From assembly GCA_019306185.1 (NCBI GenBank), contig JAFDMD010000003.1, positions 1 to 45,617 of the forward strand: DNA of 45,617 nucleotides, given 5' to 3'. The position numbers were made by a program, and so were the translations under genes. The DNA is from Deltaproteobacteria bacterium (GTDB lineage Bacteria > Desulfobacterota > Desulfobacteria > Desulfobacterales > JAFDMD01). The notes beneath the pieces were generated by a model that saw only the letters and a program-made list of their open reading frames with translations, was not told the DNA's origin and searched no databases. Positions 2,083 through 42,037 of the stretch are shown piece by piece. Within the stretch, counting starts at the first letter, position 1, and each line of letters opens with the position of its first letter.

Positions 2083-2100
2083 AAAGTGAGGTGTTTGCAG

Positions 2101-3102
2101 ATGAATATAAATTATTTGGCTTCGCTAGTAGCAGTTATTGTTTTGTTTCTGCTCGCTTATGTAGGCGTTGAAGCGGCGGGGCTTCGATATTTTTTCGGAG
2201 TTTTGCTCCCATATCTTGCAGTGATTATCTTTATTGTAGGTTTTGTAAAAAAGATAGTAGGATGGGCAAAAACTCCCGTGCCGTTTCGCATTCCCACAAC
2301 CTGCGGGCAACAGGAAACGTTAAGTTGGATTAAACCCGCAAAAATTGATAATCCGACTACCCGTTCCGGCGTTTTTGTAAGAATGCTTTTGGAAGTATTA
2401 TGCTTTAGGTCATTATTCCGAAACACTACAATGGAATTAAGAGAAGAGAATAAACTGTCTTATGAATGGGAAAAATGGCTTTGGCTTTTTGCTTTGCTTT
2501 TCCATTATTCCTTTTTAACGGTTTTATTGCGTCATTTAAGATTCTTTTTAGAGCCTGTTCCCGGATGCGTTAAGTTTTTAGAAAGCATAGACGGTTTTTT
2601 ACAAATAGGCTTACCCGGCATTATGATATCCGGCATACTTCTTCTTGCCGCCCTTTTATTTCTTCTTGTAAGAAGAATTATTATCCCCAAAATGAGATAT
2701 ATATCGCTTGCGTCCGATTATTTCCCGTTATTTTTAATTATAGGAATCGCTATAACCGGCATTTTAATGCGTTATTTTATTCGAGTTGACATAACCGGCA
2801 TCAAAGAGCTTACAATAGGTCTTGTAACGTTTCATCCGGTAATTCCGGAGGGCATAGGGGGACTTTTTTATGTTCATTTGTTTTTTGTAAGCGTTCTTAT
2901 AGCATATTTTCCTTTTAGCAAGCTTATGCACTTGGGCGGAATATTTATGAGCCCCACAAGAAATGTTACTACGGATACGCGGGCTACAAGATATGTTAAT
3001 CCATGGAATTATGACGTTGAAGTCCATACTTATGAAGAGTATGAAGATGAGTTCAGAGAAAAAATGATAGGAGCCGGGCTGCCGGTCGAAAAGGAGAGTT
3101 AA
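2101..3102 (+). CDS. dsrM: DsrM, membrane b-type cytochrome subunit of DsrMKJOP
   Basis: DsrM is the integral membrane haem b protein (NarI-like) of the DsrMKJOP complex, thought to exchange electrons between menaquinol and DsrK/DsrC. About six hydrophobic segments are visible. The family stretches 'PFRIPTTCGQQ', 'SLFRNT', 'LVRHLRFF'-like (here LLRHLRFFLEPVP) and 'PFSKLMHLGG' are present, and the C-terminus 'HTYEEYEDEFREKM' is typical. An in-frame GTG at 2086 would add MRCLQ; I prefer ATG 2101 because of TGAGGTG 7 bases upstream and alignment with known DsrM N-termini. The stop abuts the dsrK ATG, indicating translational coupling. Confidence 0.95.
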   Translation: MNINYLASLVAVIVLFLLAYVGVEAAGLRYFFGVLLPYLAVIIFIVGFVKKIVGWAKTPVPFRIPTTCGQQETLSWIKPAKIDNPTTRSGVFVRMLLEVLCFRSLFRNTTMELREENKLSYEWEKWLWLFALLFHYSFLTVLLRHLRFFLEPVPGCVKFLESIDGFLQIGLPGIMISGILLLAALLFLLVRRIIIPKMRYISLASDYFPLFLIIGIAITGILMRYFIRVDITGIKELTIGLVTFHPVIPEGIGGLFYVHLFFVSVLIAYFPFSKLMHLGGIFMSPTRNVTTDTRATRYVNPWNYDVEVHTYEEYEDEFREKMIGAGLPVEKES

Positions 3103-4731
3103 ATGTCAGAGCCTAAACCTGATGAATTAATAAGAAAAATGGAGCATAAGCCGCCTCAAAAGGGGTGGATGGATACTCCCGTAAACATTAGAAAAGGAAT
3201 GTATTGCTACGCTTCTAATCCTAAAAGCGTAGAATATCTTGGGCTTCCTAATGCGCGTCCTTGGAATCCGTTAGATGTTGACTGGAAGCTTCCTCCCGAT
3301 TGGAAAGAGATTATCCATAAAGGATTTAGAGAACGCCTTGATAAATTCAGGTCTTTTAAAATATTTATGGATGTTTGCGTTAGATGCGGAGCCTGCGCGG
3401 ATAAATGCCATTTTTTTATAGGAACCGGCGATCCTAAAAATATGCCCGTATTAAGAGCGGAGCTTTTAAGGTCGATTTATAGAAACGATTTTACCGTCGC
3501 CGGCAAAATTTTCGGAAAACTTGCGGGCGCAAGAGAGATGACAATAGACGTCTTAAAAGAGTGGTGGTATTATCTGTTTCAATGCACAGAATGCAGACGA
3601 TGCTCGGTATTTTGTCCTTACGGAATAGATACCGCCGAAATTACTATTATGGGAAGAGAACTTCTTAATCTTTTGGGGCTTAATATAGACTGGATAGCCA
3701 CTCCGGTTGCCAACTGCTATAGAACAGGAAATCATCTCGGAATTCAGCCGCATGCTTATAAGGATATGATCGACTTTTTTGTAGAGGATATAGAAGAAGT
3801 TACAGGAGTAAAGGTTGACCCCTCCTTTAACGAAAAAGGGGCGGACATACTATTTATTACTCCTTCCGGAGACGTTTTTGCGGATCCTGGAACATATACG
3901 GCTATGGGCTACCTTATGTTATTCCATTATTTAAAAGATATGGGATTGAACGTTACTTGGAGCACTTACGCTTCCGAAGGCGGAAACTTCGGCTTTTTTA
4001 CTTCGCACGAAACAATGAAACGTCTTAATAAAAAAATGTATGCGGAAGCAAAAAGGCTCGGAGTAAAATGGATACTCGGCGGAGAATGCGGGCATATGTG
4101 GCGAGTAATAAATCAATATATGGATACAATGAACGGTCCCGCAGATTTTCTTGAAGTTCCGGTTTCTCCTATAACAGGCACAAGATTTGAAAATGCAAAG
4201 TCAACTAAAATGGTTCATATAGCGGAATTTATGGCGGACCTTATAAAGCATAAGAAACTGAAACTTGATCCTTCCAGAAACGATCATCTTAAGGTTACTT
4301 ATCATGATTCCTGCAACACAGCGAGAGGCATGGGAATGCTTGAAGAGCCGAGATACGTAATAAATAACGTATGCAATAATTTTTATGAAATGCCGCCCAA
4401 TACCATAAAAGAACAAACATTTTGCTGCGGAAGCGGCTCCGGTTTAAACGCCGGCGAAAACATGGAACAAAGAATGGCGGGCGGATTTCCAAGAGCAAAC
4501 GCCGTTAAACATGTTCATGAAAAATACGGAGTTAATATGCTTTCCTGCGTATGCGCCGTAGATAGAGCCGCATTACCGCCGCTTATGGATTATTGGGTTC
4601 CCGAAGTAGGCGTTTGCGGTCTTACGGAGTTAGTCGCCAACGCCCTTGTTATACCGGGCGAAGCCGAAAGAAATACGGACTTAAGAGGCGAAGAACTATT
4701 GGGTAAGGAGGAGGAGAATAAAAATGTTTAA
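3103..4731 (+). CDS. dsrK: DsrK, cytoplasmic iron-sulfur (HdrD-like) subunit
   Basis: DsrK is the HdrD-like catalytic subunit of DsrMKJOP, which acts on the DsrC trisulfide/disulfide in the cytoplasm. Two classical 4Fe-4S motifs are present: Cys92, 95, 98, 102 and Cys161, 164, 167, 171. The C-terminal CCG-type domain is shown by ECGHMW, HDSCN and FCCGSGSG, the ligands of the special cubane cluster. At 542 residues it is of usual length. It follows dsrM with no gap and overlaps dsrJ by 8 bp. No signal peptide is present, as expected. Confidence 0.96.
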   Translation: MSEPKPDELIRKMEHKPPQKGWMDTPVNIRKGMYCYASNPKSVEYLGLPNARPWNPLDVDWKLPPDWKEIIHKGFRERLDKFRSFKIFMDVCVRCGACADKCHFFIGTGDPKNMPVLRAELLRSIYRNDFTVAGKIFGKLAGAREMTIDVLKEWWYYLFQCTECRRCSVFCPYGIDTAEITIMGRELLNLLGLNIDWIATPVANCYRTGNHLGIQPHAYKDMIDFFVEDIEEVTGVKVDPSFNEKGADILFITPSGDVFADPGTYTAMGYLMLFHYLKDMGLNVTWSTYASEGGNFGFFTSHETMKRLNKKMYAEAKRLGVKWILGGECGHMWRVINQYMDTMNGPADFLEVPVSPITGTRFENAKSTKMVHIAEFMADLIKHKKLKLDPSRNDHLKVTYHDSCNTARGMGMLEEPRYVINNVCNNFYEMPPNTIKEQTFCCGSGSGLNAGENMEQRMAGGFPRANAVKHVHEKYGVNMLSCVCAVDRAALPPLMDYWVPEVGVCGLTELVANALVIPGEAERNTDLRGEELLGKEEENKNV

Positions 4732-5116
4732 TAACAAGCTGGTTATCGCGGGCTTAATTATTTTCGTAGGCATTATTACTTTTCCGTTTTGGTTTAACCA
4801 TGCAAAAGTAGTCGCTCCGCCCGAAGTTAAATTAACCGAGAAAGCAAAAGAGGCTAAAGAATGCATTTTGCCGGATAAATTAAAAATGCGCGGCGAGCAT
4901 ATGCAGCTTCTTGACGTTTGGCGAGATACGGTAGTTAGAGAGGGCAATAGAAAGTATGTGGGAACAAACGGAAAAGAGTATGAAATGAGTTTGTCTAATA
5001 CTTGTTTGGATTGTCATTCCAATAAAGCCGATTTTTGCGATAAATGTCATGAATACGCATCCGTGGATCCCTATTGCTGGGATTGTCATATTGATAATCC
5101 GAAGGAGACAAAATAA
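4724..5116 (+). CDS. dsrJ: DsrJ, triheme cytochrome c subunit
   Basis: DsrJ is the periplasmic triheme c-type cytochrome of the Dsr complex. Three CXXCH haem-binding motifs are visible: CLDCH (94-98), CDKCH (105-109) and CWDCH (118-122). An N-terminal hydrophobic helix (about residues 5-24) serves as signal anchor. Cys47 in the ECILP context matches the family's conserved cysteine proposed to ligate one haem. The length of 130 residues is normal. GGAGG precedes the ATG, which lies inside the end of dsrK (8-bp overlap); the TAA stop shares a base with the dsrO ATG. Confidence 0.95.
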   Translation: MFNNKLVIAGLIIFVGIITFPFWFNHAKVVAPPEVKLTEKAKEAKECILPDKLKMRGEHMQLLDVWRDTVVREGNRKYVGTNGKEYEMSLSNTCLDCHSNKADFCDKCHEYASVDPYCWDCHIDNPKETK

Positions 5117-5913
5117 TGAAACGCAATAGAAGAGAATTTTTAAAATTGGCGGGCGTAACCGCCGCATCCGCATCCGTTATGAGCGTTACAAGCGGTTTAA
5201 TCACGGCGGAAGCTTCCGGCGCCGGCGTGGCAAAACCGACTACTATACTTAAAAAAAATAAAAAAGCGCTTACTGCAAAAAGATGGGGAATGGTTATAGA
5301 TACCAGAAAGTTAGAAACCGAATCGGATATAGAACATATTGTTTCCGCATGTCATAAAATTCATAATGTTCCTAAAATGGAAAATAAAAACCATGAAATA
5401 AAATGGGTATGGGAAGATGAATTTAAGCATGTTTTTGCGGAACAGGAGCATGAATTGGTAAATGAAAGACTTCGTCATCTTCCTTTTTTAGTCTTATGCA
5501 ATCATTGCAAAAATCCATCCTGCGTTAAGGCATGCCCTACAAACGCTACCTTTCAAACAAAAGAAGGGCTTGTAATGATGGATTTCCATAGATGCATAGG
5601 ATGTAGATTTTGTATGGCGGCATGTCCTTACGGATCAAGAAGCTTTAATTTCCAAGACCCCCGCCCTTTTATAAAGGAAACAAATAAAGAGTTTCCTACC
5701 CGTATGAAAGGGGTTGTGGAGAAATGCAATTTTTGCGCCGAAAGACTTGCGGTAGGCAAACAGCCCGCATGCGTTGAAGCATCTAAAGGCGCTATAATAT
5801 TCGGCGACCTTGACGATCCGCAGTCCGAAATAAGAGAAGTCTTAAATACAAACTATACAATTCGCAGAAAACCCGCTCTTGGAACGGGTCCTTCGATTTA
5901 TTACATAGTGTGA
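5116..5913 (+). CDS. dsrO: DsrO, Tat-exported periplasmic ferredoxin-like subunit
   Basis: DsrO is the periplasmic 4Fe-4S protein that links DsrJ and DsrP. The N-terminus has a twin-arginine signal (RRREFLK-like: NRREFLKLAG, residues 4-13) with a hydrophobic core and an Ala-rich cleavage region around residue 30-35. Cysteine clusters CNHCKNPSCVKACP, CIGCRFCMAACP and CNFC...C give the four-cluster ferredoxin pattern of the DmsB/NrfC type. The start overlaps the dsrJ stop (TAATG). The length of 265 residues is as expected. Confidence 0.95.
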   Translation: MKRNRREFLKLAGVTAASASVMSVTSGLITAEASGAGVAKPTTILKKNKKALTAKRWGMVIDTRKLETESDIEHIVSACHKIHNVPKMENKNHEIKWVWEDEFKHVFAEQEHELVNERLRHLPFLVLCNHCKNPSCVKACPTNATFQTKEGLVMMDFHRCIGCRFCMAACPYGSRSFNFQDPRPFIKETNKEFPTRMKGVVEKCNFCAERLAVGKQPACVEASKGAIIFGDLDDPQSEIREVLNTNYTIRRKPALGTGPSIYYIV

Positions 5914-5920
5914 GGTGAAT

Positions 5921-7078
5921 ATGCTTGAATTGGCGTTAAAAGGAAGTAAAAAATTTTATGTATGGCTTACCGCCCTGTTAGTTATAGCGGGGATAGGATT
6001 TGCCTTTTATGTATGGCAGTTTAATTTCGGGCTGGGCATAACCGGTATGAGCCGCGACGTATCTTGGGGATTTTATATCGCCCAGTTTACCTTTTTGGTA
6101 GGCGTCGCCGCCGGCGGAGTTATGGTTGTTTTGCCCTATTATCTGCATAATTATAAAGCATTCGGAAAAATTACCATATTGGGAGAATTTCTCGCGGTCG
6201 CCGCTCTTACAATGTGTATGCTTTTTATTATAGTCGATTTGGGGCAGCCTACGCGCATACTTAACGTATGGCTTCATCCAACTCCTCATTCGGTTCTTTT
6301 TTGGGATACTCTTGTATTAAACGGCTACCTATTATTAAACATAGTAGTAGGTTGGAAAGTTCTTGAAGCCGAAAGAAACGACGTTCATTATAAAAACTGG
6401 CTTAAACCGTTAATTTATATATCAATACCTTTTGCAGTCAGCATCCATACGGTTACCGCATTCTTATATTGCGGACTTCCCGGCAGAGGCTTTTGGTTGA
6501 CCGCAATATTAGCTCCGAGATTTCTTGCATCCGCTTTTGCGGCTGGTCCGGCGCTATTAATACTTTTATGTCTTTTTGTCCGCAAAGCAACCAACTTTGA
6601 TCCGGGTAAAGAGCAAATACAATCGCTTGCAAAAATAGTTGCATACGCAATATGTTTAAACCTATTTTTCTTTTTATGCGAAGTATTCGTAGCTTTATAC
6701 AGCGGCATACCGGAACATATAGATCATATAAAATATCTATTCTACGGACTTCACGGACATGGAGCGCTTGTTCCGTGGATGTGGACTTCTATGGGCTTAA
6801 TGGTCGTTGGAATAATCCTTTTGGTAAACCCCGGCACAAGACGCAACGAAGGCGTTCTTGCCGCGGCATGCGTTGCGGTTTTTGCGGGGACATGGATAGA
6901 TAAAGGGCTCGGAATGATCTCCGGCGGTTTTATACCCTCTCCGTTGCACCATGTAAACGAATATGCGCCTACATTTCCGGAACTTATGATTACTCTTGGC
7001 GTTTATGCGATAGGCGCTACGGTTTTGACTATATTGTTTAAAATAGCCGTATCCGTAAAAGAGGAGACAAACGGTTAA
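5921..7078 (+). CDS. dsrP: DsrP, NrfD-like membrane quinone-interacting subunit
   Basis: DsrP is the NrfD/PsrC-type integral membrane subunit with about ten transmembrane segments, thought to react with menaquinone and pass electrons to or from DsrO. The sequence is strongly hydrophobic throughout, with the NrfD-like 'GMSRDVSWGFYIAQFTFLVGVAAGG' region split over residues about 30-60 and 'PSPLHHVNEYAPT' near the end. A GTG at 5915 would add two residues; I chose ATG 5921, preceded by GAGGTG. It is the last gene of the operon and is followed by a terminator at 7109-7143. Confidence 0.94.
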   Translation: MLELALKGSKKFYVWLTALLVIAGIGFAFYVWQFNFGLGITGMSRDVSWGFYIAQFTFLVGVAAGGVMVVLPYYLHNYKAFGKITILGEFLAVAALTMCMLFIIVDLGQPTRILNVWLHPTPHSVLFWDTLVLNGYLLLNIVVGWKVLEAERNDVHYKNWLKPLIYISIPFAVSIHTVTAFLYCGLPGRGFWLTAILAPRFLASAFAAGPALLILLCLFVRKATNFDPGKEQIQSLAKIVAYAICLNLFFFLCEVFVALYSGIPEHIDHIKYLFYGLHGHGALVPWMWTSMGLMVVGIILLVNPGTRRNEGVLAAACVAVFAGTWIDKGLGMISGGFIPSPLHHVNEYAPTFPELMITLGVYAIGATVLTILFKIAVSVKEETNG

Positions 7079-32190: not shown

Positions 32191-32991
32191 TTATCGGTTT
32201 TTTGTCGCTTTTTTATATTCGTCCGTCTGTTTTGCAATTATACTTTCCAACTCGGGATTATCGATATTCTTTTCTATGGTTTTTTCAAAAGCGCTTCCTA
32301 TAACTATGCCGTCCGCAAAGGAGGCTACCGAAGAAACATGCTCCGGCGTAGATATTCCAAACCCAACGCATACCGGAAGATCGGTAATAGAACGAATTAT
32401 TTTAAATTTATCGGCAGATAACGTCGTATCTATTCCCGCGCTTCCGGTAACTCCGATTTTTGACACAAGATATAAAAATCCGGAAGCGGAATCGGCTATT
32501 TTTTTAATTCTATCTTTCGGCGTAGTTAAGGCTATAAGACGGATTAAGGCAAGTTTATTTCCTTCCCATTCGTTAGTCATTTCGTCCGATTCTTCGGGAG
32601 GCAGATCAACTATCAACAGCCCGTCCGCTCCGGCGGATACGGCGTCGATATAAAATTTTTTATTTCCGTATAAATGTATAGGATTATAATAGCCGAATAA
32701 TATTATCGGAATATTTGTAAATTCTCTTATACTTTTTGTTAATTTTAAAACGGCTTTTATATTTACGCCCTGTTTTAAAGCTCTTGCCGAGGCTCTTTGT
32801 ATTACAGGTCCGTCTGCCGTAGGATCCGAAAACGGTATGCCAAGCTCCAATATATCGACGCCGGCTTTATGCATATTTTTTATAATGCTCAAAGACTTTT
32901 TTATATTAGGATCTCCGGCAGTTACAAAAGCTACAAGCGCCTTTTCATTTTTTGCTTTTAATTTTTCAAACGTTTCTTTTATGCGATTCAT
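32191..32991 (-). CDS. trpA: tryptophan synthase alpha subunit
   Basis: TrpA cleaves indole-3-glycerol phosphate to indole and glyceraldehyde 3-phosphate in the TrpAB complex. The catalytic Glu and Asp are in ELGIPFSDPTADGP (about residues 46-59), and the phosphate-binding GFGIS loop is present near residue 209. The length of 266 residues is normal. It is the last gene of the trp operon, 16 bp after trpB. Confidence 0.96.
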   Translation of the reverse strand: MNRIKETFEKLKAKNEKALVAFVTAGDPNIKKSLSIIKNMHKAGVDILELGIPFSDPTADGPVIQRASARALKQGVNIKAVLKLTKSIREFTNIPIILFGYYNPIHLYGNKKFYIDAVSAGADGLLIVDLPPEESDEMTNEWEGNKLALIRLIALTTPKDRIKKIADSASGFLYLVSKIGVTGSAGIDTTLSADKFKIIRSITDLPVCVGFGISTPEHVSSVASFADGIVIGSAFEKTIEKNIDNPELESIIAKQTDEYKKATKNR

Positions 32992-33007: not shown

Positions 33008-34204
33008 TTATTTCAAATTTATTTGCTCCGATACAATACCCAAATCCTTATCTCCTCTGCCGGAAAGATTAACCAATATAATATCCTCTTTTGATCTTTT
33101 CGGAGCCTCTTTTATGGCGTAAGCAAGCGCATGAGAACTTTCCAAAGCGGGAATTATGCCTTCGGTTTCGGAAAGCGCTTTAAAAGCGTTTAAAGCCTCC
33201 TTATCTTTTATAGATACATATTTTATACGTTTTAAATCTTTAAAATAGGAATGCTCCGGTCCTACTCCCGGATAATCTAATCCCGCGGAAATAGAATGAG
33301 CCTCTTTGATTTGTCCGTTATTATCCTGTAATAAATATGATTTTGAGCCGTGTAAAACGCCTATATTTCCGCATTCCAAAGTCGCGGCATGTTTTCCTGT
33401 TTCTATGCCTTTGCCTGCGGCTTCAACGCCTGTCATTTCCATGGAATCGTTTATAAAAGGGTAAAAAAGCCCCATTGCATTGCTTCCGCCTCCTACGCAG
33501 GCTACAAGCATATCCGGCAATTTTTTCTCCTGTTTTAATATCTGCTCTTTTGCTTCGATTCCTATGATTTTTTGAAAATCCCTAACCATTACGGGATAAG
33601 GATGAGGTCCCGCTACCGAGCCTATAACATAAAAAGTATCTTCCACCGCTTCCGTCCAATACCTTATAGCCTCGTTCATCGCATCCTTTAATGTTCCGGT
33701 TCCGGAGTCTACCGGTATTACTTTTGCTCCCAAAAGCTTTATTCTGGAAACGTTGGGGGCTTGCCTTTTAATATCTTCGGTTCCCATAAATATTGTGCAT
33801 TCCATGTTAAAAAGAGCCGATGCAGCCGCTGTTGCCACTCCGTGTTGTCCCGCTCCTGTTTCCGCTATGATTTTGCTTTTTCCCATATGTTTTGCAAGCA
33901 GGGTTTGACCTACGGTATTATTGATTTTATGCGCTCCTGTATGGGTAAGGTCCTCCCGTTTTAAATATATTTTTGCTCCGTTACAGCAAGCGCTTAATCT
34001 TTTTGCATAAAAAAGAGGGGTTGGTCTGCCTATATAATTTTTTATCAAAAGATTAAATTCGGTTTGAAAATCGGGGTTATTAAAAAATTTATTGTATGCC
34101 TTATTAAGCTCTATAAGAGCGGGCATTAATGTTTCGCCTACATATCGTCCGCCGTAAATTCCGAAATGCCCGTTTTGATCCGGCATCTTTTTATTTTTCT
34201 TCAT
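33008..34204 (-). CDS. trpB: tryptophan synthase beta subunit
   Basis: TrpB condenses indole with serine to form tryptophan using PLP. The PLP lysine is in HTGAHKINN (about residue 88), the phosphate-binding GGGSNAMG loop is near residue 233, and 'GRGDKDL' is at the end. At 398 residues it is a standard TrpB1. The ATG abuts the trpF stop codon. Confidence 0.97.
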
Positions 34205-34876
34205 TTAAAAAATTCTCCTTAATTGACGTTGTTCGTTTTTTATATCGAAAAGTTTGCCGATAATGTTTTTTACCTTTAAAATATCTTTGTTTCCCGGAAA
34301 AGTTTCCGCTCCGGAACTTATATCGACTGCATCCGGCTCGGCGGATATAACCGCGCTTAATATGTTTTCCGCATTTATGCCTCCGGCAAGTATTAACGGG
34401 CGAGTTGTTCCGAAATTTTTTGCTTTTTCCCAATTCCATTCCAATGCGTTGCCTCCGGGAAGCGCCCCTTTTCCGCATTCTATAAGATATGCGGACGCGT
34501 TATATAAAGGGGCTTCGGATATAAAGGGTTTTTTATTTATAAATAAGGCTTTTATTGCGAATATTTTTTTTTTTATAAGATTATCAATATATTCCGGCGG
34601 TTCTGCCCCGTGTAACTGAACTGCTTGCAATCTGCATTTTTCAACTGTTTTTAAGACGGAATCTATTTTTTCATTTACAAATACTCCGGTTGTTACTATT
34701 TTTTCGGAAAGCGCCGAAGTTATTTGTTTTGCTTTCTCCGGCTTAATGTATCTGGGGCTTTTATTATAAAAAACAAGCCCTATGGCGTCTACTCCGGCTT
34801 TTTCGCATTTTACCGCCTGTTTGACATTTGTTAATCCGCATATTTTAATCTGCGGTTTTATAAGTTTTATATTCAT
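34205..34876 (-). CDS. trpF: phosphoribosylanthranilate isomerase
   Basis: TrpF catalyses the Amadori rearrangement of phosphoribosylanthranilate. The catalytic Cys is in IKICGLTN and the catalytic Asp in VDAIGL or the later DISSGAE phosphate-binding region. The reading frame is open to 34951, but I chose ATG 34876 because GGAG lies five bases upstream and the extra 25 residues would be translated from the palindromic element at 34889-34945. The stop abuts the trpB start. Confidence 0.93.
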   Translation of the reverse strand: MNIKLIKPQIKICGLTNVKQAVKCEKAGVDAIGLVFYNKSPRYIKPEKAKQITSALSEKIVTTGVFVNEKIDSVLKTVEKCRLQAVQLHGAEPPEYIDNLIKKKIFAIKALFINKKPFISEAPLYNASAYLIECGKGALPGGNALEWNWEKAKNFGTTRPLILAGGINAENILSAVISAEPDAVDISSGAETFPGNKDILKVKNIIGKLFDIKNEQRQLRRIF

Positions 34877-34888
34877 TTTACTCCGTTT

Positions 34889-34945
34889 ATATTTCGGCGG
34901 GTAACGTTGTATTTTGCCCGTTTGCGTTGTTATACGCCGAAATAT
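34889..34945. repeat. 57-bp palindromic element between trpC and trpF
   Basis: ATATTTCGGCG (34889-34899) is mirrored by CGCCGAAATAT (34935-34945); the left half reads GGCGGGTAAC then TTTGCCCGTTTGCG, very close to the left half of the element at 31979. It lacks the CCTCGAAATACTTC core. Confidence 0.8.
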
Positions 34946-35024
34946 CATCATCCTTTTTTATAATTAAATCTAGTAGCGAGTTTTAACGCCGAACAAACGA
35001 ATAAATTATTTTATCGAACAATTA

Positions 35025-35825
35025 TCAAGTTTCTCCTCGCAATTTTTTTAAAAAACTAACCGTATTATCTGCGCGAACAAGGCTTTCCCCTATTAAAAAA
35101 TTATAAAGCCCCGCTTTTCTGCTCTCTTCTATATCCTTTTTATTTTTAATACCGCTTGCCGCGATCGAAATTATTTTTTTATCTATCATAGAAGCGAGCC
35201 TTGCGGCATTTGTTATGTCTGTTTTAAAAGTATTTAAGTTTCTGTTGTTAATTCCTATTATTTCGGCGTTTGCAAAATGAGCCTCATTTATGCTTTTTTC
35301 CGAATCTACCTCTACAAGCGCGCTCATGCCGAGTTGACCCGCAAGGCTAACGTAATCTTTTAATTGCTCTTTTGATAATATTTTAGCTATTAAAAGTATG
35401 GCGTCCGCTTTTAAAAGCGCGGCGGATTGAAATATCTGATAAGAAGATATTATAAAATCTTTTCTTAATACCGGAAGCAAACCGCTTTTTTTTGCGATTT
35501 TAAAATCGTTAAAGCTTCCTTTAAAAAAATAGGAGTCCGTTAAAACCGAAATTGCGGCGGCTCCTCCTATTCGGTAAGCTTCGGCAAGTTTTGCGGCGTT
35601 AAGATCAATTTTAATTTCCCCTTTTGAAGGGGACGCTCTTTTTATTTCGGCTATTATGCTTATGCCGGAATCGCCTGTTTTTTTTAAGGCGTTATAAAAA
35701 AAAATTTTATTGCCCGCAGACTTTTCCGCTATTTCTCTAACGCTTTGTTCCGAATCTGTTTTTTTATGTTCCGCTATTTCTATTTTTTTACGTTCTATTA
35801 TTTTTTTTAAAAAATTTTTATCCAT
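35025..35825 (-). CDS. trpC: indole-3-glycerol phosphate synthase
   Basis: TrpC closes the indole ring of CdRP. The signature 'IIAEIKRASPSKGEI' with catalytic Lys and Glu is at about residues 56-70, 'VLRKDFIIS' follows, and 'IGINNRNLNTF' and 'AASGIKNKKDI' are present. At 266 residues it is a single-domain enzyme without TrpF fusion. About 150 bp separate it from the trpF ATG, filled by the palindromic element. Confidence 0.96.
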   Translation of the reverse strand: MDKNFLKKIIERKKIEIAEHKKTDSEQSVREIAEKSAGNKIFFYNALKKTGDSGISIIAEIKRASPSKGEIKIDLNAAKLAEAYRIGGAAAISVLTDSYFFKGSFNDFKIAKKSGLLPVLRKDFIISSYQIFQSAALLKADAILLIAKILSKEQLKDYVSLAGQLGMSALVEVDSEKSINEAHFANAEIIGINNRNLNTFKTDITNAARLASMIDKKIISIAASGIKNKKDIEESRKAGLYNFLIGESLVRADNTVSFLKKLRGET

Positions 35826-36086: not shown

Positions 36087-37106
36087 TTACAGGCTGTTTT
36101 CCCTTGTAAATTCTATAAGTCTTTCCAATTTGTCTTTTGCCTCGCCGGAATCTATCGATTCTTCCGCCATTTTGATTCCCGCTTGATACGAATCCGCTTT
36201 TTCCGCCGCAACAAGAGTCGCCGCCGTATTTATAAGAACAATATTTCGTTTATCCCCTTTTTCTCCGTTAAGTATATCATTTGTTATTTTTGCGTTGAGA
36301 CGCGCATCTCCGCCTTTAATGCTTTCTATAGGGGCAAGCCTTCCGAAATAATCGGACGGATTTATGTCGTAACTTTTTATTTCCCCTTTTTTAAGTTCGG
36401 ATATTCTTGTTAAATCGCATACTGTTATTTCATCTAATCCGTCGTGTCCGCAAACTACGGAGGCTTTTTTTGAACCGAGTATTTTTAAAACATTGGCAAA
36501 GGTTTCCGTAAGATGTAACGCATATACTCCTATTAACTGGCAATTTGCGCCCGCAGGATTTGTAAGGGGACCAAGCATATTAAATATGCTTCTTATTCCA
36601 ACCTCTTTTCTTGCCTTTGCCGCATATTTCATTGCTCCGTGATATAAAGGGGCGAATAAAAACCCTATCCCTATTTCATTTATAGCCTCTTCTACTATTT
36701 CCGGATGCGTCTCTATTTTTACTCCAAGCGCTTCTAATACGTCCGCGCTTCCGCATTTACTCGATACGGAGCGATTGCCATGTTTTGCTACGGTTACGCC
36801 GCATCCTGCGGTAACAAAAGCTGTAGTTGTGGAGATGTTAAAAGTGTTTGAAAAGTCTCCTCCGGTTCCTACGGTATCCGCTACCGTAGCGCCTGCTACT
36901 TGTATTCTAAAAGCTTTGCGCCTCATCGCAAGAGCCGCTCCCGCAATTTCTTCAAATGTTTCTCCTTTTGAGGCAAGAGCCGCCATAAAAGCGCCTATCT
37001 GAGAGTTCGCGCATTTGTTTGTAAGTATTCGGTCTATCATGTATTCGATTTCTTCCGTAGTAAGATTTTCGCGATTTATGATTTTATTTAAGTATTCTTT
37101 AAACAT
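36087..37106 (-). CDS. trpD: anthranilate phosphoribosyltransferase
   Basis: TrpD joins anthranilate to PRPP. The PRPP site GTGGDFSNTFNIST is at about residues 81-94; the usual GTGGDG has Phe in place of the last Gly here, a mild variant. The later KHGNRSVSSKCGSADVLEALG region is intact. The length of 339 residues is normal. It is not fused to TrpG. Confidence 0.95.
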   Translation of the reverse strand: MFKEYLNKIINRENLTTEEIEYMIDRILTNKCANSQIGAFMAALASKGETFEEIAGAALAMRRKAFRIQVAGATVADTVGTGGDFSNTFNISTTTAFVTAGCGVTVAKHGNRSVSSKCGSADVLEALGVKIETHPEIVEEAINEIGIGFLFAPLYHGAMKYAAKARKEVGIRSIFNMLGPLTNPAGANCQLIGVYALHLTETFANVLKILGSKKASVVCGHDGLDEITVCDLTRISELKKGEIKSYDINPSDYFGRLAPIESIKGGDARLNAKITNDILNGEKGDKRNIVLINTAATLVAAEKADSYQAGIKMAEESIDSGEAKDKLERLIEFTRENSL

Positions 37107-37164: not shown

Positions 37165-37743
37165 TTATACCGCTTCTGCGGTTAAATTTAAAAAATTTCT
37201 TAAAAGTCTTTTTCCTACGGCGGTCATTATTGATTCCGGATGAAATTGTATCCCTTCTGTTAAGTCTTTTTTATGTCGGATTCCCATTATTTCACCGTCT
37301 TCGGTTCTTGCCGTTATGTATAAGCTGTTCGGGAGTTTTTTTTCGGACGCCGCCAAAGAATGATAACGCATTGCGTAAAACGGCTTTTTTATTCCTTTGT
37401 ATATTTTTTTGCCGTCCGCCGTAATTAAAGATGTTTTTCCATGCATAATTTTTTTCGCCTGTATTATTTCGCCCCCGAATGCCGCGGCAATGCTTTGATG
37501 TCCCAAACATACTCCGAGTATCGGTATTTTACCGGTAAATTCTTTTATTGTATTTACGGATATGCCCGCGGATTCCGGTCTTCCGGGTCCGGGCGATATT
37601 ATTATTCCCGCAGGTTTTAAGGTTTTTATTTCGGAAATTTTAATTGCGTCGTTTCTTACGACCTTTGTCTGCGCGCCGATTTGCTTTACATATTGAACAA
37701 GGTTGTATGTAAATGAATCGTAATTGTCTATTATAAGTATCAT
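37165..37743 (-). CDS. trpG: anthranilate synthase glutamine amidotransferase subunit
   Basis: TrpG supplies ammonia from glutamine to TrpE. The class I amidotransferase triad is visible: Cys in GVCLGHQ (about residue 78), His and Glu in FHPES near the C-terminus. The 192-residue size is that of a stand-alone TrpG/PabA. About 58 bp separate it from trpD and 300 bp from trpE, the latter gap holding repeats. Confidence 0.95.
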   Translation of the reverse strand: MILIIDNYDSFTYNLVQYVKQIGAQTKVVRNDAIKISEIKTLKPAGIIISPGPGRPESAGISVNTIKEFTGKIPILGVCLGHQSIAAAFGGEIIQAKKIMHGKTSLITADGKKIYKGIKKPFYAMRYHSLAASEKKLPNSLYITARTEDGEIMGIRHKKDLTEGIQFHPESIMTAVGKRLLRNFLNLTAEAV

Positions 37744-38044: not shown

Positions 38045-39544
38045 TTAAATATCTTTGCCAATCGCCTTTCCTCTGTTTTTAAGAAGCATAAGCGCTTTTT
38101 TTATTGCCTTTGCCTTATTTATACATTCCTTATATTCGGCTTCCGGATCAGAATCTGCAACTATTCCCGCGCCTGCGGTTACGGTTAATTTATTATCCTC
38201 TGCTACGGCTGTTCTTATTATAATAGCCATGTCCATGTTCCCGCTAAAAGATATATAGCCTACGGCGCCTCCGTAAGCTCCTCTGTAATTATCTTCGGTT
38301 TCCGCTATTATTTCCATTGCTCTTATTTTAGGCGCGCCGGATAATGTTCCCGCGGGAAAGGACGCCTTAATTAAATCCCAAGCGTCTTGATTATCTTCAA
38401 TATCGCAGGTTATATTGGAAACAAGATGCATTACATGCGAATAACGCTCCACTACCATAAGATCGGTTACCTGAACGGTTCCGGTTTTTGCTATTTTACC
38501 CAAATCGTTTCGTCCCAAATCAACAAGCATTAGGTGTTCCGCTTTCTCTTTTTCGTCCGCCAAAAGTTCGTTTGCAAGCTTTACGTCTGCAAGTTCATCT
38601 TCTCCTCTCGGTCTTGTGCCCGCTATTGGTCTTAATGTTGCAACCCGATTTTCCAAACGAACCATTGTTTCCGGAGAGGAGCCTATAAGAGCGGTTTCGT
38701 CTATGTTTAAAAAGTAAAGATAAGGGGACGGATTTATATATCTTTGCGCTCTATAAAGTTCGGAAATATCCGAAGGCGCTTTTGAAACAAAGGATTGAGA
38801 TATAACCGCCTGTATTATTTCGCCTGATTTTATATAATTTTTTACTTTTTTTACCTTTTCAATGTAATCCTCTTTTTTGCATTGAGATATTAATTCAAAA
38901 TCATCCTCCGTAGTCAAAGTTTTTTCGGGAGATTTTTCTCTTATTTTAGTTATTAGTTTGTTAAGTTTTTTTATTGCCTCGTCATATAAGTCGCCGGCCT
39001 GTTTCTTATCTTTTATAAAGGCTATTGCGGCTCCGGTTATTGTATGTTTTACATTGTCGAATATTATAAGGCTGTCCGGAATTATAAATTTTGCCATTGG
39101 TTTATTATTCGGAAACGATACCGGTATTTTTTCAAAAAAAGATACGGTTTCATACCCGAAATATCCTACTATGCCTCCCCAAAATCTTGGCAATTCCGGC
39201 ATATTTGCAGGTATGTATTGAGCCATAAACTTTTTTAAAACATTTAAAGGGTCTCCGTTATGATTTATCTTTTTGGTTTTGCCTTGATTTTCTATTTCAA
39301 CATAATCTTTAAAAACCTTTATGTTGCCGGAAGCCGAAACCATTAAAAAACTATATCTTCCCCATCTTTCCTTGCCTTCAACGCTTTCAAAAAGGGCTAT
39401 GGGCTTTTGAGGGACGTAAAATTTTTTAAGCATGGTTACCGGAGTTTCCATATCCGCAAGCATTTCAAAGCATACCGGTATTACGTTATATTTTTTTGCC
39501 ATGTCGCAAAATTTTTTTTTATTCGGAAATTGATTTATAAGCAT
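38045..39544 (-). CDS. trpE: anthranilate synthase component I
   Basis: TrpE converts chorismate to anthranilate with ammonia from TrpG. The chorismate-binding core is intact: 'FPAGTLSGAPKIRAMEII' near residue 395, 'GRNDLGKI' and 'AGAGIVADSDPEAEYKE'. The N-terminal 'ALFESVEGKERWGRYSF' corresponds to the LLES-type tryptophan feedback site. At 499 residues it is full length. The start has AAAGGAG 6 bases upstream. It is the first structural gene of the operon, below the attenuator. Confidence 0.96.
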   Translation of the reverse strand: MLINQFPNKKKFCDMAKKYNVIPVCFEMLADMETPVTMLKKFYVPQKPIALFESVEGKERWGRYSFLMVSASGNIKVFKDYVEIENQGKTKKINHNGDPLNVLKKFMAQYIPANMPELPRFWGGIVGYFGYETVSFFEKIPVSFPNNKPMAKFIIPDSLIIFDNVKHTITGAAIAFIKDKKQAGDLYDEAIKKLNKLITKIREKSPEKTLTTEDDFELISQCKKEDYIEKVKKVKNYIKSGEIIQAVISQSFVSKAPSDISELYRAQRYINPSPYLYFLNIDETALIGSSPETMVRLENRVATLRPIAGTRPRGEDELADVKLANELLADEKEKAEHLMLVDLGRNDLGKIAKTGTVQVTDLMVVERYSHVMHLVSNITCDIEDNQDAWDLIKASFPAGTLSGAPKIRAMEIIAETEDNYRGAYGGAVGYISFSGNMDMAIIIRTAVAEDNKLTVTAGAGIVADSDPEAEYKECINKAKAIKKALMLLKNRGKAIGKDI

Positions 39545-39687: not shown

Positions 39688-39720
39688 AAAAAGGGCGCGA
39701 ATTGAATCCGCGCCCTTTTT
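39688..39720 (-). terminator. second terminator-like hairpin in the trp leader
   Basis: A perfect 12-bp stem, AAAAAGGGCGCG (39688-39699) with CGCGCCCTTTTT (39709-39720), loop of 9; on the minus strand it is followed by T-rich DNA. It lies between the attenuator terminator and trpE, where a constitutive terminator would be unexpected. Confidence 0.8.
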
Positions 39721-39737
39721 TAAAGTTTATAAAGCAT

Positions 39738-39770
39738 AAAAAAAACCGCGGAGGGTTAAGCCGCCGCGGT
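39738..39770 (-). terminator. trp attenuator terminator
   Basis: On the minus strand ACCGCGG (39770-39764) pairs with CCGCGGT (39751-39745), followed by seven to eight T (39745-39738). It lies 29 bp after the leader peptide stop codon, as in classical trp attenuators. Confidence 0.85.
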
Positions 39771-39798
39771 CTTTTTTTTAATTATTATATAAAAATAT

Positions 39799-39882
39799 TC
39801 ATACGCCGTCGGCAAGCTTGGTTTTGTAACCCTGCCAACGCCAATTTTTTAATTTGTTATTATTTGATATGTAAATATTCAT
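39799..39882 (-). CDS. trpL: trp leader peptide (attenuator)
   Basis: A 27-residue open frame on the minus strand, ATG at 39882 and TGA at 39799, with AAGGAA 7 bases upstream. Residues 14-16 are Trp-Arg-Trp (TGG CGT TGG). The DNA from codon 15 can form a 1:2 hairpin: 39840-39831 (CGTTGGCAGG) with 39816-39807 (CTTGCCGACG), ten pairs including two G-U. Segment 2 can in turn pair with the 5' arm of the terminator (GCCG with CGGC at 39763-39760 and flanking bases), though more weakly. Ribosome stalling at the Trp codons would cover segment 1 and favour read-through. No long ORF covers this gene. Confidence 0.85.
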   Translation of the reverse strand: MNIYISNNNKLKNWRWQGYKTKLADGV

Positions 39883-39913
39883 AAAAAAATTCCTTATGTA
39901 AATTTCAAGAATA

Positions 39914-39943
39914 AAAATAACCGAAAAAATTAATTTATGTCAA
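39914..39943 (-). promoter_or_regulatory. candidate trp operon promoter
   Basis: On the minus strand a perfect TTGACA (39943-39938) is followed after 18 bases by TATTTT (39919-39914, 4 of 6). The start of the trpL peptide lies about 32 bp downstream. Confidence 0.6.
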
Positions 39944-39993: not shown

Positions 39994-40404
39994 CTAAAAA
40001 ATATTAGCCGCTTTTTTAATTTTATTAGCCGCGTCCAAAGGCTTTTTTTTTATTTCGCATTCCCAAATTCTTATAACTTTCCAACCTAAATTCGCAAGAT
40101 GAGAATTTACCTTTTTATCTCTTTTTATATTTCTATCAATTTTTTTATCCCAATAATCTTTGTTGGAAGCGGACTTTGTATTTCTGCAGTCGTGTCCATG
40201 CCAAAAACAGCCGTCAACAAAAACCGTAATTTTATATTTATGAAAAACAAAATCCGGCTTGCCGAATACTTTATAATTTCGTCTCCATCCTTCTATCCCG
40301 TATTGTCGAAAAATTTCTATTAATTTTAATTCGGTTGACTTATTTTTATTCGATTTAACCGCTCTCATTACTTTTGAGCGTTTCTCTTTTGAAAAAACGT
40401 CCAT
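39994..40404 (-). CDS. vsr: Vsr, very short patch repair (T:G mismatch) endonuclease
   Basis: Vsr nicks 5' of T in T:G mismatches that arise when 5-methylcytosine deaminates at the sites of a partner C5-methylase. The 136-residue protein has the family pattern: 'RSKVMRAVKSNKNKSTELKL' at the start, GKPDFVF with the catalytic Asp, and VFVDGCFWHGHDC with zinc and catalytic residues. It is intact. Its ATG lies six bases after the end of the broken restriction gene, suggesting translational coupling in the ancestral methylase-restriction-vsr operon. Confidence 0.93.
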   Translation of the reverse strand: MDVFSKEKRSKVMRAVKSNKNKSTELKLIEIFRQYGIEGWRRNYKVFGKPDFVFHKYKITVFVDGCFWHGHDCRNTKSASNKDYWDKKIDRNIKRDKKVNSHLANLGWKVIRIWECEIKKKPLDAANKIKKAANIF

Positions 40405-40410
40405 AATTTT

Positions 40411-41148
40411 TTACCTGTTAATTGCAACCCAATTTTTTTGAAAACCGATTTGTTCTATAATTTTTTCAAAATCTAAAGGTAAAGGTTTTTTTATACGGAA
40501 TCGAATCGCCGAAGCGGGTATATAAGAATATATAATAGTAAACTATCCTCCGCTCGGCTGCCATGTAAACTTATGCTCTTTATTGACTTTATTAATTCCT
40601 TCCAAATTACCGTTTTTATTTTCTCGCCACTCATATTCACCCGGAATGAATTTGTTAGTCTCGGTTTCAAAAAGCGTAAACTCAAGCTTATTTATGTTTC
40701 TTATAAGAATTACGGTTCTCATATAATCATATTTATCTAAAGCTATATTAATACGCTCGTTTCATATGTTAATTATTGCTTTTCCGGTTTCTTCCAAGTT
40801 CTTGCGAGGCTCGCTAATACCGTAAGAGTAATCCGGAGAATTTCTACCGGAGATTATTCTGATTTTTTTACAAGAATGAGGGTTTTTGTTTTTAACGCTT
40901 TTCACAGACCATGCCTGTTTTTTAAAAACCACATCGGCTAGCCCCAAAGGGCGCGCCAAATGTTTGCCGTTTATAGAACTTGCAAAAATATTTCCCCAAT
41001 CTTCTCCGCTAATATCCGCTTTACCTATAGCAAAATTATATACTAACCTTCGGCTGATTTCGTATATTGCTTCCTTTGGAAATTCTCCGAGAGGATATAA
41101 TTCGCTTCCTGTTCTCTCTTTTGCATCTCTCAATTTTGGACGTCGCAT
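40411..41148 (-). pseudogene. type II restriction endonuclease gene with two in-frame stops
   Basis: A single frame of 246 codons runs from ATG 41148 to TAA 40411, with TGA at codon 129 (40764-40762) and TAG at codon 202 (40545-40543) and no frameshift. Translation between and after the stops stays protein-like (for example NERVNIALDKYDYMRTVILI, then EHKFTWQPSGG, then FRIKKPLPLDFEKIIEQIGF). Asp72 and the SVKSVK segment (81-86) fit a PD-(D/E)XK site. The family is not identified to target level. The start overlaps the methylase by 113 bp. Trp (TGG) and Gln (CAG) are likely ancestral codons. Other genes here use TGA and TAG or TAA as stops, so recoding is unlikely. Confidence 0.85.
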
Positions 41149-42037
41149 GTATAACCTCTTTGATTACGGCTTTAATTATCGTTACAGGAACCGCGTTGCC
41201 GACTTGCTTTTTGGTTTGGCAATCGGAACAAACAATTTTAAATGTTTCCGGAAAACCTTGCAATCTGAGCATTTCGCGCGGAGTAAGTCTTCTTTTTCCG
41301 TTAACGAGAAGATAATTATAAGAGGCGCCGGCGCGCAACGCGCATGAATAAGGATAACTTGTAACGTTGCCTCCTTTATTTTCATGCCAAATAGCCAAGC
41401 TGTATTTACTTTTGTGTTTAATGCGTCTTTTTTCGCAAATTTTATCGCTGGCATAATGTTTTTTGTCAACTTTGCTTTCGATTATTTTGGAAAGAGGAAT
41501 ATATTCTTTTTTGGGGTAAGGCCATTTAAACTCTACGGAATTATTAAGAAAACCGACTATAATAACTCTTTCTCTTTTTTGGGGCAACCCGTAATCAAGA
41601 GCGTTAAGAACCCGCCAACCAACTTTATATCCAAGCGTTTCCAATGATTCTATAATTCTATTAATAGTCTGTTTTTTATTATGAGCCGCCAGTTGTTTGA
41701 CATTTTCCAAAATAAAGGTAGAAGGTTGTTTTGCTTTTAATATTCTTATGATTTCAAAAAAAAGAGTCCCTCTAATATCTTCAAACCCTAATCTTTTCCC
41801 TATAATGCTGAAGGGCTGGCAAGGGAAACCGGCAAAAAGCATATCGTGGGTAGGAATATCAGACGCCTTTATCTTTGTTATATCTCCGCTTACTTTTATT
41901 CCGTAATTCGCTTCATAGGCTTTTTTTGCATAAGCGTCTGTTTCGCTGGCAAAAAGGCATTTTCCGCCGAGCGATTTGGCGGCGAAATGAAAGCCTCCGA
42001 TTCCGGCAAATAGGTCTATAAAAGTAAATTTGTTCAT
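41036..42037 (-). CDS. DNA cytosine-5 methyltransferase (Dcm-type)
   Basis: This 333-residue C5-methylase has motif I FIDLFAGIGGFH (residues 6-17), motif IV PCQPFS with catalytic Cys73, motif VI ENV (from Glu111), motif VIII QKRERV and motif X GNAVP, in the usual order, with the target-recognition region between VIII and X. The recognition sequence cannot be read from this. It is intact and is followed by an overlapping restriction-gene remnant and by vsr. The last 30 or so residues come from the overlap and may be dispensable. Confidence 0.94.
   Translation of the reverse strand: MNKFTFIDLFAGIGGFHFAAKSLGGKCLFASETDAYAKKAYEANYGIKVSGDITKIKASDIPTHDMLFAGFPCQPFSIIGKRLGFEDIRGTLFFEIIRILKAKQPSTFILENVKQLAAHNKKQTINRIIESLETLGYKVGWRVLNALDYGLPQKRERVIIVGFLNNSVEFKWPYPKKEYIPLSKIIESKVDKKHYASDKICEKRRIKHKSKYSLAIWHENKGGNVTSYPYSCALRAGASYNYLLVNGKRRLTPREMLRLQGFPETFKIVCSDCQTKKQVGNAVPVTIIKAVIKEVIHATSKIERCKRENRKRIISSRRISKGSNIRNQPKVSI

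What the first reader, a model, noticed from the sequence alone, without database searches (positions are those of the whole stretch)
39688..39882. trp attenuator with leader peptide and two terminators in series
A 27-residue leader with Trp-Arg-Trp, a 10-bp 1:2 hairpin and a terminator form a classical attenuator outside the enteric bacteria. A second perfect terminator-like hairpin then stands before trpE. A tandem arrangement would need read-through of both, or the second may act as a processing or stabiliser hairpin.
Basis: partly seen in the sequence, partly recalled or inferred. Interest (0 to 1): 0.6.

Follow-up and report, generated by a model that had tools for sequence, protein, structure and literature searches.

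The report
Trp attenuator with two linked terminators
The tryptophan operon of this sulfate-reducer-type bacterium is led by an RNA switch in which one tryptophan-sensing ribosome appears to control two successive transcription stop signals through a chain of alternative RNA pairings, a design that recurs across related families in front of many amino-acid genes.

Summary
On the minus strand a leader peptide with Trp-Arg-Trp (39882-39799), a 1:2 hairpin, terminator T1 (39775-39740) and terminator T2 (39720-39688) precede a complete trpEGDCFBA operon. T2 is not an unrelated extra hairpin. In 125 trpE upstream regions of the same order, 113 have a Trp-rich leader and 101 of these have both terminators. 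The 3' arm of T1 with its U-tract (arm 4) pairs with the 5' arm of T2 (arm 5) in 99 of 99 genomes analysed (mean 12.6 bp). True partners pair 2.4 kcal/mol better than swapped ones (0 of 2000 shuffles); the control pairing 3:6 gains only 0.6. The RNA is therefore a six-arm chain (1:2, 3:4, 5:6 against 2:3, 4:5). A ribosome stalled on Trp codons is predicted to switch off both terminators at once. The same coupled pair occurs across the phylum before trpC, trpD, trpB-like, DAHP synthase, ADTH synthase and ilvB genes, with leaders rich in Trp, Phe/Tyr or Leu/Val/Ile. Precedents are ermK (two terminators, one leader) and the his leader (six arms, one terminator), so this is a new variant of a known kind. 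No experiment was possible.

The parts
39914..39943 (-). promoter-like site: TTGACA 39943-39938 and a -10-like hexamer
   Evidence: consensus scan, 10 of 12, not above chance as a count; TTGACA conserved at the same place in both congeners
39891..39895 (-). Shine-Dalgarno AAGGA of the leader peptide
   Evidence: sequence
39799..39882 (-). leader peptide ORF, 27 aa, Trp-Arg-Trp
   Evidence: NWRWQ.YK.KLADG conserved in both congeners
39835..39843 (-). regulatory codons UGG CGU UGG, inside or next to arm 1
   Evidence: Trp codons in or next to arm 1 in 99 of 99 relatives
39828..39842 (-). arm 1
   Evidence: 1:2 cognate -17.5 against -13.3 kcal/mol swapped
39805..39819 (-). arm 2 (pairs with 1 or with 3)
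   Evidence: 2:3 cognate -18.3 against -14.9 swapped
39756..39771 (-). arm 3 (5' arm of T1; alternative partner arm 2)
39738..39754 (-). arm 4 with U-tract (3' arm of T1; alternative partner arm 5)
39740..39775 (-). terminator T1 (3:4), -19.7 kcal/mol
39706..39721 (-). arm 5 with A-tract (5' arm of T2; alternative partner arm 4)
39688..39702 (-). arm 6 with U-tract (3' arm of T2)
39688..39720 (-). terminator T2 (5:6), -21.4 kcal/mol
38045..39544 (-). trpE
   Evidence: NCBIfam trpE_most 506 bits (cut-off 517.7)
37165..37743 (-). trpG
   Evidence: TIGR00566 above cut-off
36087..37106 (-). trpD
   Evidence: TIGR01245 above cut-off
35025..35825 (-). trpC
   Evidence: NF001377 above cut-off
34205..34951 (-). 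trpF
   Evidence: best NCBIfam hits all phosphoribosylanthranilate isomerase, below cut-off
33008..34204 (-). trpB
   Evidence: TIGR00263 above cut-off
32191..32991 (-). trpA
   Evidence: TIGR00262 above cut-off

Best explanation
This is a ribosome-mediated trp attenuator with two coupled terminators, a six-arm chain. With enough Trp-tRNA the ribosome reaches the stop codon just behind arm 2 (or, without translation, 1:2 forms). Arm 3 is then free to pair with arm 4 and T1 terminates transcription. Polymerases that leak past T1 meet T2, which can form because arm 4 is held by arm 3. When Trp-tRNA is short the ribosome stalls on the UGG codons in arm 1 and 2:3 forms. Arm 4 with its U-tract is left single-stranded and captures arm 5 as it emerges, so 5:6 (T2) is also prevented. 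One ribosome decision thus sets both terminators, giving tighter repression without costing induction. Shown here: the anatomy, the conservation, and the co-variation of all five pairings. Inferred: leader translation, termination at T1 and T2, and the kinetic order of folding.
For: Tandem layout in 101 of 113 leader-bearing trpE upstream regions; 39 families among the 99 analysed. Duplex energies, true against swapped partners: 3:4 -20.0/-15.1, 4:5 -17.3/-14.9, 5:6 -21.2/-15.7, control 3:6 -11.2/-10.7. With one genome per family, 4:5 z is -6.7 and 3:6 z is -1.9. Arms 1:2 and 2:3 also co-vary; control 1:3 hardly. On an alignment of 37 families, 4:5 is 92% paired with 21 double-change cells against 5.4 +- 2.5 in shuffles (0 of 500); 3:6 is 80% paired, and its pair and pair-type counts do not exceed shuffles. 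At one column 4:5 is U-G, U-A or C-G in 37 of 37, where 3:6 would be mismatched in 28. In congener G001 arm 4 and arm 5 changed together (UCCGCG/CGCGGA to UCCACG/CGUGGA) although this leaves a mismatch in both T1 and T2. An independent set of 41 elements at other genes or in other groups of the phylum repeats it: 4:5 -19.5 against -16.8, z -7.4. In four genomes the 3:4 hairpin has lost its U-tract while 3:4, 4:5 and 5:6 pairing potential is kept. Folding of the window: naked RNA gives 1:2, 3:4, 5:6; with 2:3 locked, 4:5 holds until the last 2 nt of arm 6 emerge.
Against: No transcription data. At equilibrium T1 and T2 win in the window even with arm 1 masked, so the switch must be kinetic. Over 99 genomes 4:5 still beats 5:6 in only 53 once arm 6 is fully out, and in 89 three bases earlier. 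In the window 4:5 carries a G-G mismatch (6 bp, then 8-9 U-A/U-G pairs). A few relatives do with T1 alone. The cognate test cannot fully remove shared ancestry, although the one-per-family and same-genome cross-element controls agree.
Confidence: 0.8

Rival explanations
1. T1 is a classical attenuator and T2 is an independent, partial terminator that merely lowers basal expression. The 4:5 complementarity is a by-product of T2 having arisen as a copy of T1 or of a shared terminator vocabulary.
For: T1 and T2 share the core ACCGYGG/CCRCGGT, and similar hairpins exist elsewhere in the genome.
Against: A copy would make 3:6 as complementary as 4:5, but 3:6 is about 6 kcal/mol weaker and carries a conserved mismatch. 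True 4:5 partners beat those from another element in the same genome (12 of 17, p 0.004). An independent T2 would also terminate under starvation.
Confidence: 0.1
2. T2 is an RNA processing or stabilising hairpin that protects the 5' end of trp mRNA.
For: T2 is a strong hairpin that would stay in read-through transcripts whenever 4:5 is displaced.
Against: A median of 7 U in the 8 nt after the T2 core and the conserved alternative partner are not needed for a stabiliser.
Confidence: 0.04
3. A his-type chain: 3:4 mainly transmits the ribosome's state and only T2 matters as terminator.
For: Four relatives have lost the T1 U-tract but keep 3:4, 4:5 and 5:6.
Against: In the window and nearly all relatives T1 keeps a full U-tract (mean 7 of 8).
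Confidence: 0.06

Closest known systems
Enteric-type trp attenuator (Rfam RF00513 Trp_leader)
   Same: leader with Trp codons in arm 1; 1:2, 2:3, 3:4 logic; trpE downstream
   Different: four arms and one terminator; no Rfam match (19.3 bits against a gathering score of 41); here a fifth and sixth arm form a second, coupled terminator
ermK attenuator of Bacillus licheniformis (Kwak 1991, as cited in PMC4335068)
   Same: one leader peptide followed by two adjacent Rho-independent terminators
   Different: senses macrolides through drug-stalled ribosomes in a Bacillus; here amino-acid codons, in another phylum, with comparative evidence for the linking helix
his operon leader of Salmonella (PMC4046918)
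   Same: six-arm chain, A:B and E:F against B:C and D:E
   Different: only E:F terminates there; here 3:4 and 5:6 both have U-tracts
rimP leader with tandem terminator in some Gammaproteobacteria (PMC2965389)
   Same: two terminators in tandem with a potential anti-terminator
   Different: no leader peptide or amino-acid codons are described in the passage read; the signal differs
mgtCBR tandem attenuators of Salmonella (PMC3641672)
   Same: tandem attenuation in one leader
   Different: two ORFs that sense two different signals independently
trpB motif (Rfam RF04312; PMC11109978)
   Same: two hairpins with a U-tract, and a sub-threshold resemblance (41.3 bits against 59)
   Different: reported from Firmicutes and Fusobacteria as a riboswitch candidate; below its gathering score here

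Membership tests
ribosome-mediated amino-acid attenuator (trp type) | short leader ORF with tandem regulatory codons | tested here: met
   Trp-Arg-Trp in a 27-aa ORF; Trp-rich leader in 113 of 125 relatives
ribosome-mediated amino-acid attenuator (trp type) | regulatory codons in arm 1, stop codon behind arm 2 | tested here: met
   99 of 99; stop median 5 nt past arm 2
ribosome-mediated amino-acid attenuator (trp type) | mutually exclusive anti-terminator 2:3 and terminator 3:4 | tested here: met
ribosome-mediated amino-acid attenuator (trp type) | termination responds to Trp-tRNA charging | not testable with these tools
   needs transcript 3'-end data
Rfam RF00513 Trp_leader | score above gathering threshold | tested here: not met
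   19.3 bits against 41; no gathering hit for the element in the window or in 20 loci
Rfam RF04312 trpB motif | score above gathering threshold | tested here: not met
   41.3 bits against 59
ermK-like double-terminator attenuator | two Rho-independent terminators behind one leader peptide | tested here: met
   sequence features only, termination not assayed
ermK-like double-terminator attenuator | stalling by macrolide, erm gene downstream | tested here: not met
   Trp-codon leader, trp operon downstream
his-leader six-arm chain | alternative pairings 2:3 and 4:5 against 1:2, 3:4, 5:6 | tested here: met
his-leader six-arm chain | only the last hairpin is a terminator | tested here: not met
   both have U-tracts, except four relatives

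The most novel reading that the evidence does not exclude
A phylum-wide, undescribed class of double-checkpoint attenuators: one amino-acid-sensing ribosome controls two terminators through a co-evolved 4:5 anti-terminator. It is used for Trp, Phe/Tyr and branched-chain genes, with surviving one-terminator forms that bridge the trp-type and his-type leaders.
Probability: 0.6. Interest if true: 0.68.

Novelty: new variant of a known kind. Interest (0 to 1): 0.62.

Why it matters
Textbook attenuation makes one decision at one terminator. Here the same decision is passed on to a second terminator, which could multiply repression while leaving induction intact, a gain in dynamic range that is directly testable. 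Conservation across the families sampled, several amino acids and many genes suggests it is a standard design in this phylum. The natural one-terminator variants offer a route between the trp-type (four arms) and his-type (six arms) leaders. The anti-terminator is predictable base by base, so it also offers a compact part for building tight amino-acid-responsive switches.

Tried and rejected
The + strand was folded first by mistake; the operon and leader are on the minus strand. Chance similarity of terminators as the source of 4:5 was rejected by swapped-partner, 3:6, one-per-family and same-genome controls. Rfam gave nothing above gathering score for the element. The own genome gave no ADTH synthase or AroF-type DAHP synthase with two 70-aa probes, so the element could not be shown at a second operon of this species; its weaker model hits (for example L203) have no convincing leader or gene. 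Eight genomes from other phyla gave only background model scores (best 33.5 bits, none at E 1e-4). Literature searches found no description of coupled terminators in trp leaders of this phylum, but most subscription papers, including the comparative attenuator studies I recall from 2004, were not searchable.

Full report
Observation. The trp genes run on the minus strand as trpE-G-D-C-F-B-A (39544 down to 32191). Upstream of trpE lie a 27-codon leader (39882-39799) with Trp-Arg-Trp, a 1:2 hairpin, T1 (39775-39740) and T2 (39720-39688), followed by 143 nt to trpE. The stretch folds at z -7.6 against dinucleotide shuffles.

Congeners. The only two congeners held (public titles: Deltaproteobacteria bacterium WB1_Bin_3 and Desulfobacterales bacterium GMC8_bin_28) keep the TTGACA promoter, the leader (NWRWQ.YK.KLADG), T1 and T2. 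The T2-to-trpE spacer differs in length and cannot be aligned. T2 therefore appears to be under selection together with T1.

Order. TrpE was used to collect upstream regions from the same order. Of 125, 113 carry a Trp-rich leader and 101 of these have two terminators in series; 99 were used further (two pairs were judged spurious), from 39 families. The two core ends are 41 nt apart at the median, and both are followed by a median of 7 U in 8 nt.

Chain of pairings. Arms are numbered 1 to 6. If T1 and T2 were unrelated, only 1:2, 2:3, 3:4 and 5:6 should be preserved. Duplex energies of true partners against partners swapped between genomes were: 1:2 -17.5/-13.3, 2:3 -18.3/-14.9, 3:4 -20.0/-15.1, 4:5 -17.3/-14.9, 5:6 -21.2/-15.7. 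Controls: 3:6 -11.2/-10.7 and 1:3 -11.0/-10.5. The 4:5 advantage was reached in 0 of 2000 shuffles and holds with one genome per family (z -6.7; 3:6 z -1.9). Every genome has a 4:5 duplex of at least 8 bp, mean 12.6, including pairing of the T1 U-tract with the T2 A-tract.

Base by base. On an alignment of 37 families, 4:5 is 92% paired with 21 cells changed on both sides (shuffles 5.4 +- 2.5, 0 of 500). 3:4 is 97.6% and 5:6 93.4%. 3:6 is 80%, and its numbers of co-varying pairs and pair types do not exceed shuffles. At columns 41/72 the 4:5 pair is U-G in 29, U-A in 5 and C-G in 3 families, whereas 3:6 there is mismatched in 28 of 37; T2 is thus not simply a copy of T1. In congener G001 arm 4 and arm 5 changed together (UCCGCG/CGCGGA to UCCACG/CGUGGA) at the price of a mismatch in both T1 and T2.

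Independent set. A covariance model of T1+T2 finds further copies in the same genomes and in 132 of 297 genomes of the phylum at E 1e-4. Eight genomes of other phyla gave at most 33.5 bits. Inspected copies follow Trp leaders before trpE, trpD, trpC, a trpB-like gene and DAHP synthase; Phe/Tyr leaders (such as FYWYFY and YYYYYF) before ADTH synthase and DAHP synthase; and a Leu/Val/Ile leader before ilvB. Seven downstream genes were confirmed by NCBIfam; the others are named by their resemblance to these. In 41 such non-redundant elements 4:5 again beats swapped partners (-19.5/-16.8, z -7.4), and true partners beat partners from another element of the same genome in 12 of 17 cases (p 0.004).

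Variants. Three genomes of one family and one of another keep 3:4, 4:5 and 5:6 pairing potential but have lost the T1 U-tract, which resembles the his leader. At least five others keep T1 only, which resembles the enteric trp leader.

Mechanism in the window. The naked leader folds into 1:2, 3:4 and 5:6 (both terminators). Isolated energies are 1:2 -20.3, 2:3 -17.7, 3:4 -21.1, 4:5 -16.8, 5:6 -25.0 and 3:6 -9.3 kcal/mol. At equilibrium the terminators win, so the switch has to be kinetic: 2:3 forms before arm 4 exists, and 4:5 forms before arm 6 exists. With 2:3 locked, 4:5 holds until the last two bases of arm 6 emerge. Over 99 genomes, with arm 1 masked, 2:3 leads in 89 when arm 4 lacks three bases; with arm 3 unavailable, 4:5 leads in 89 when arm 6 lacks three bases, and in 53 when arm 6 is complete.

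Known relatives. The element works like a classical trp attenuator plus the chain logic of the his leader (PMC4046918), with two terminators as in ermK (Kwak 1991, as cited in PMC4335068). It meets no Rfam gathering threshold. A search of the open-access literature found no description of coupled terminators in amino-acid leaders of this phylum, but that library lacks most subscription papers. I file it as a new variant of a known kind. Shown: anatomy, conservation, covariation. Inferred: leader translation, termination and kinetics.

Noticed in passing
L184-L202 and L156-L183: The same coupled double terminator stands before trpD, trpC, trpB-like, DAHP synthase, ADTH synthase, ilvB, a phenylacetate-CoA-ligase-like gene and an ABC substrate-binding protein, with leaders rich in Trp, Phe/Tyr or Leu/Val/Ile.
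   Followed up: partly
L138, L140, L146, L045: The 3:4 hairpin has lost its U-tract while 4:5 and 5:6 remain: a his-like derived form of the trp leader.
   Followed up: partly
window 39994-42037 (-): A vsr mismatch endonuclease and a C5 cytosine methyltransferase lie directly upstream of the trp leader; a vsr 3' end is also visible upstream of the leader in both congeners.
   Followed up: no
window 2086-7078 (+): By sequence resemblance (not searched) a DsrMKJOP-like membrane complex, suggesting dissimilatory sulfur metabolism.
   Followed up: no
L033 upstream of trpE, between T2 and trpE: The spacer holds imperfect inverted copies of a TTTCTCGCTTTGCTCGAAATGAC-like sequence, possibly a small palindromic repeat element inserted between attenuator and trpE in this congener.
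   Followed up: no
G000:C135:4855-4904, C75:2362-2421, C8:9678-9723: Hairpins closely similar to T2 (AAAAAGGGCGCGG core with flanking A and T tracts) recur elsewhere in the genome, suggesting a shared terminator vocabulary.
   Followed up: partly
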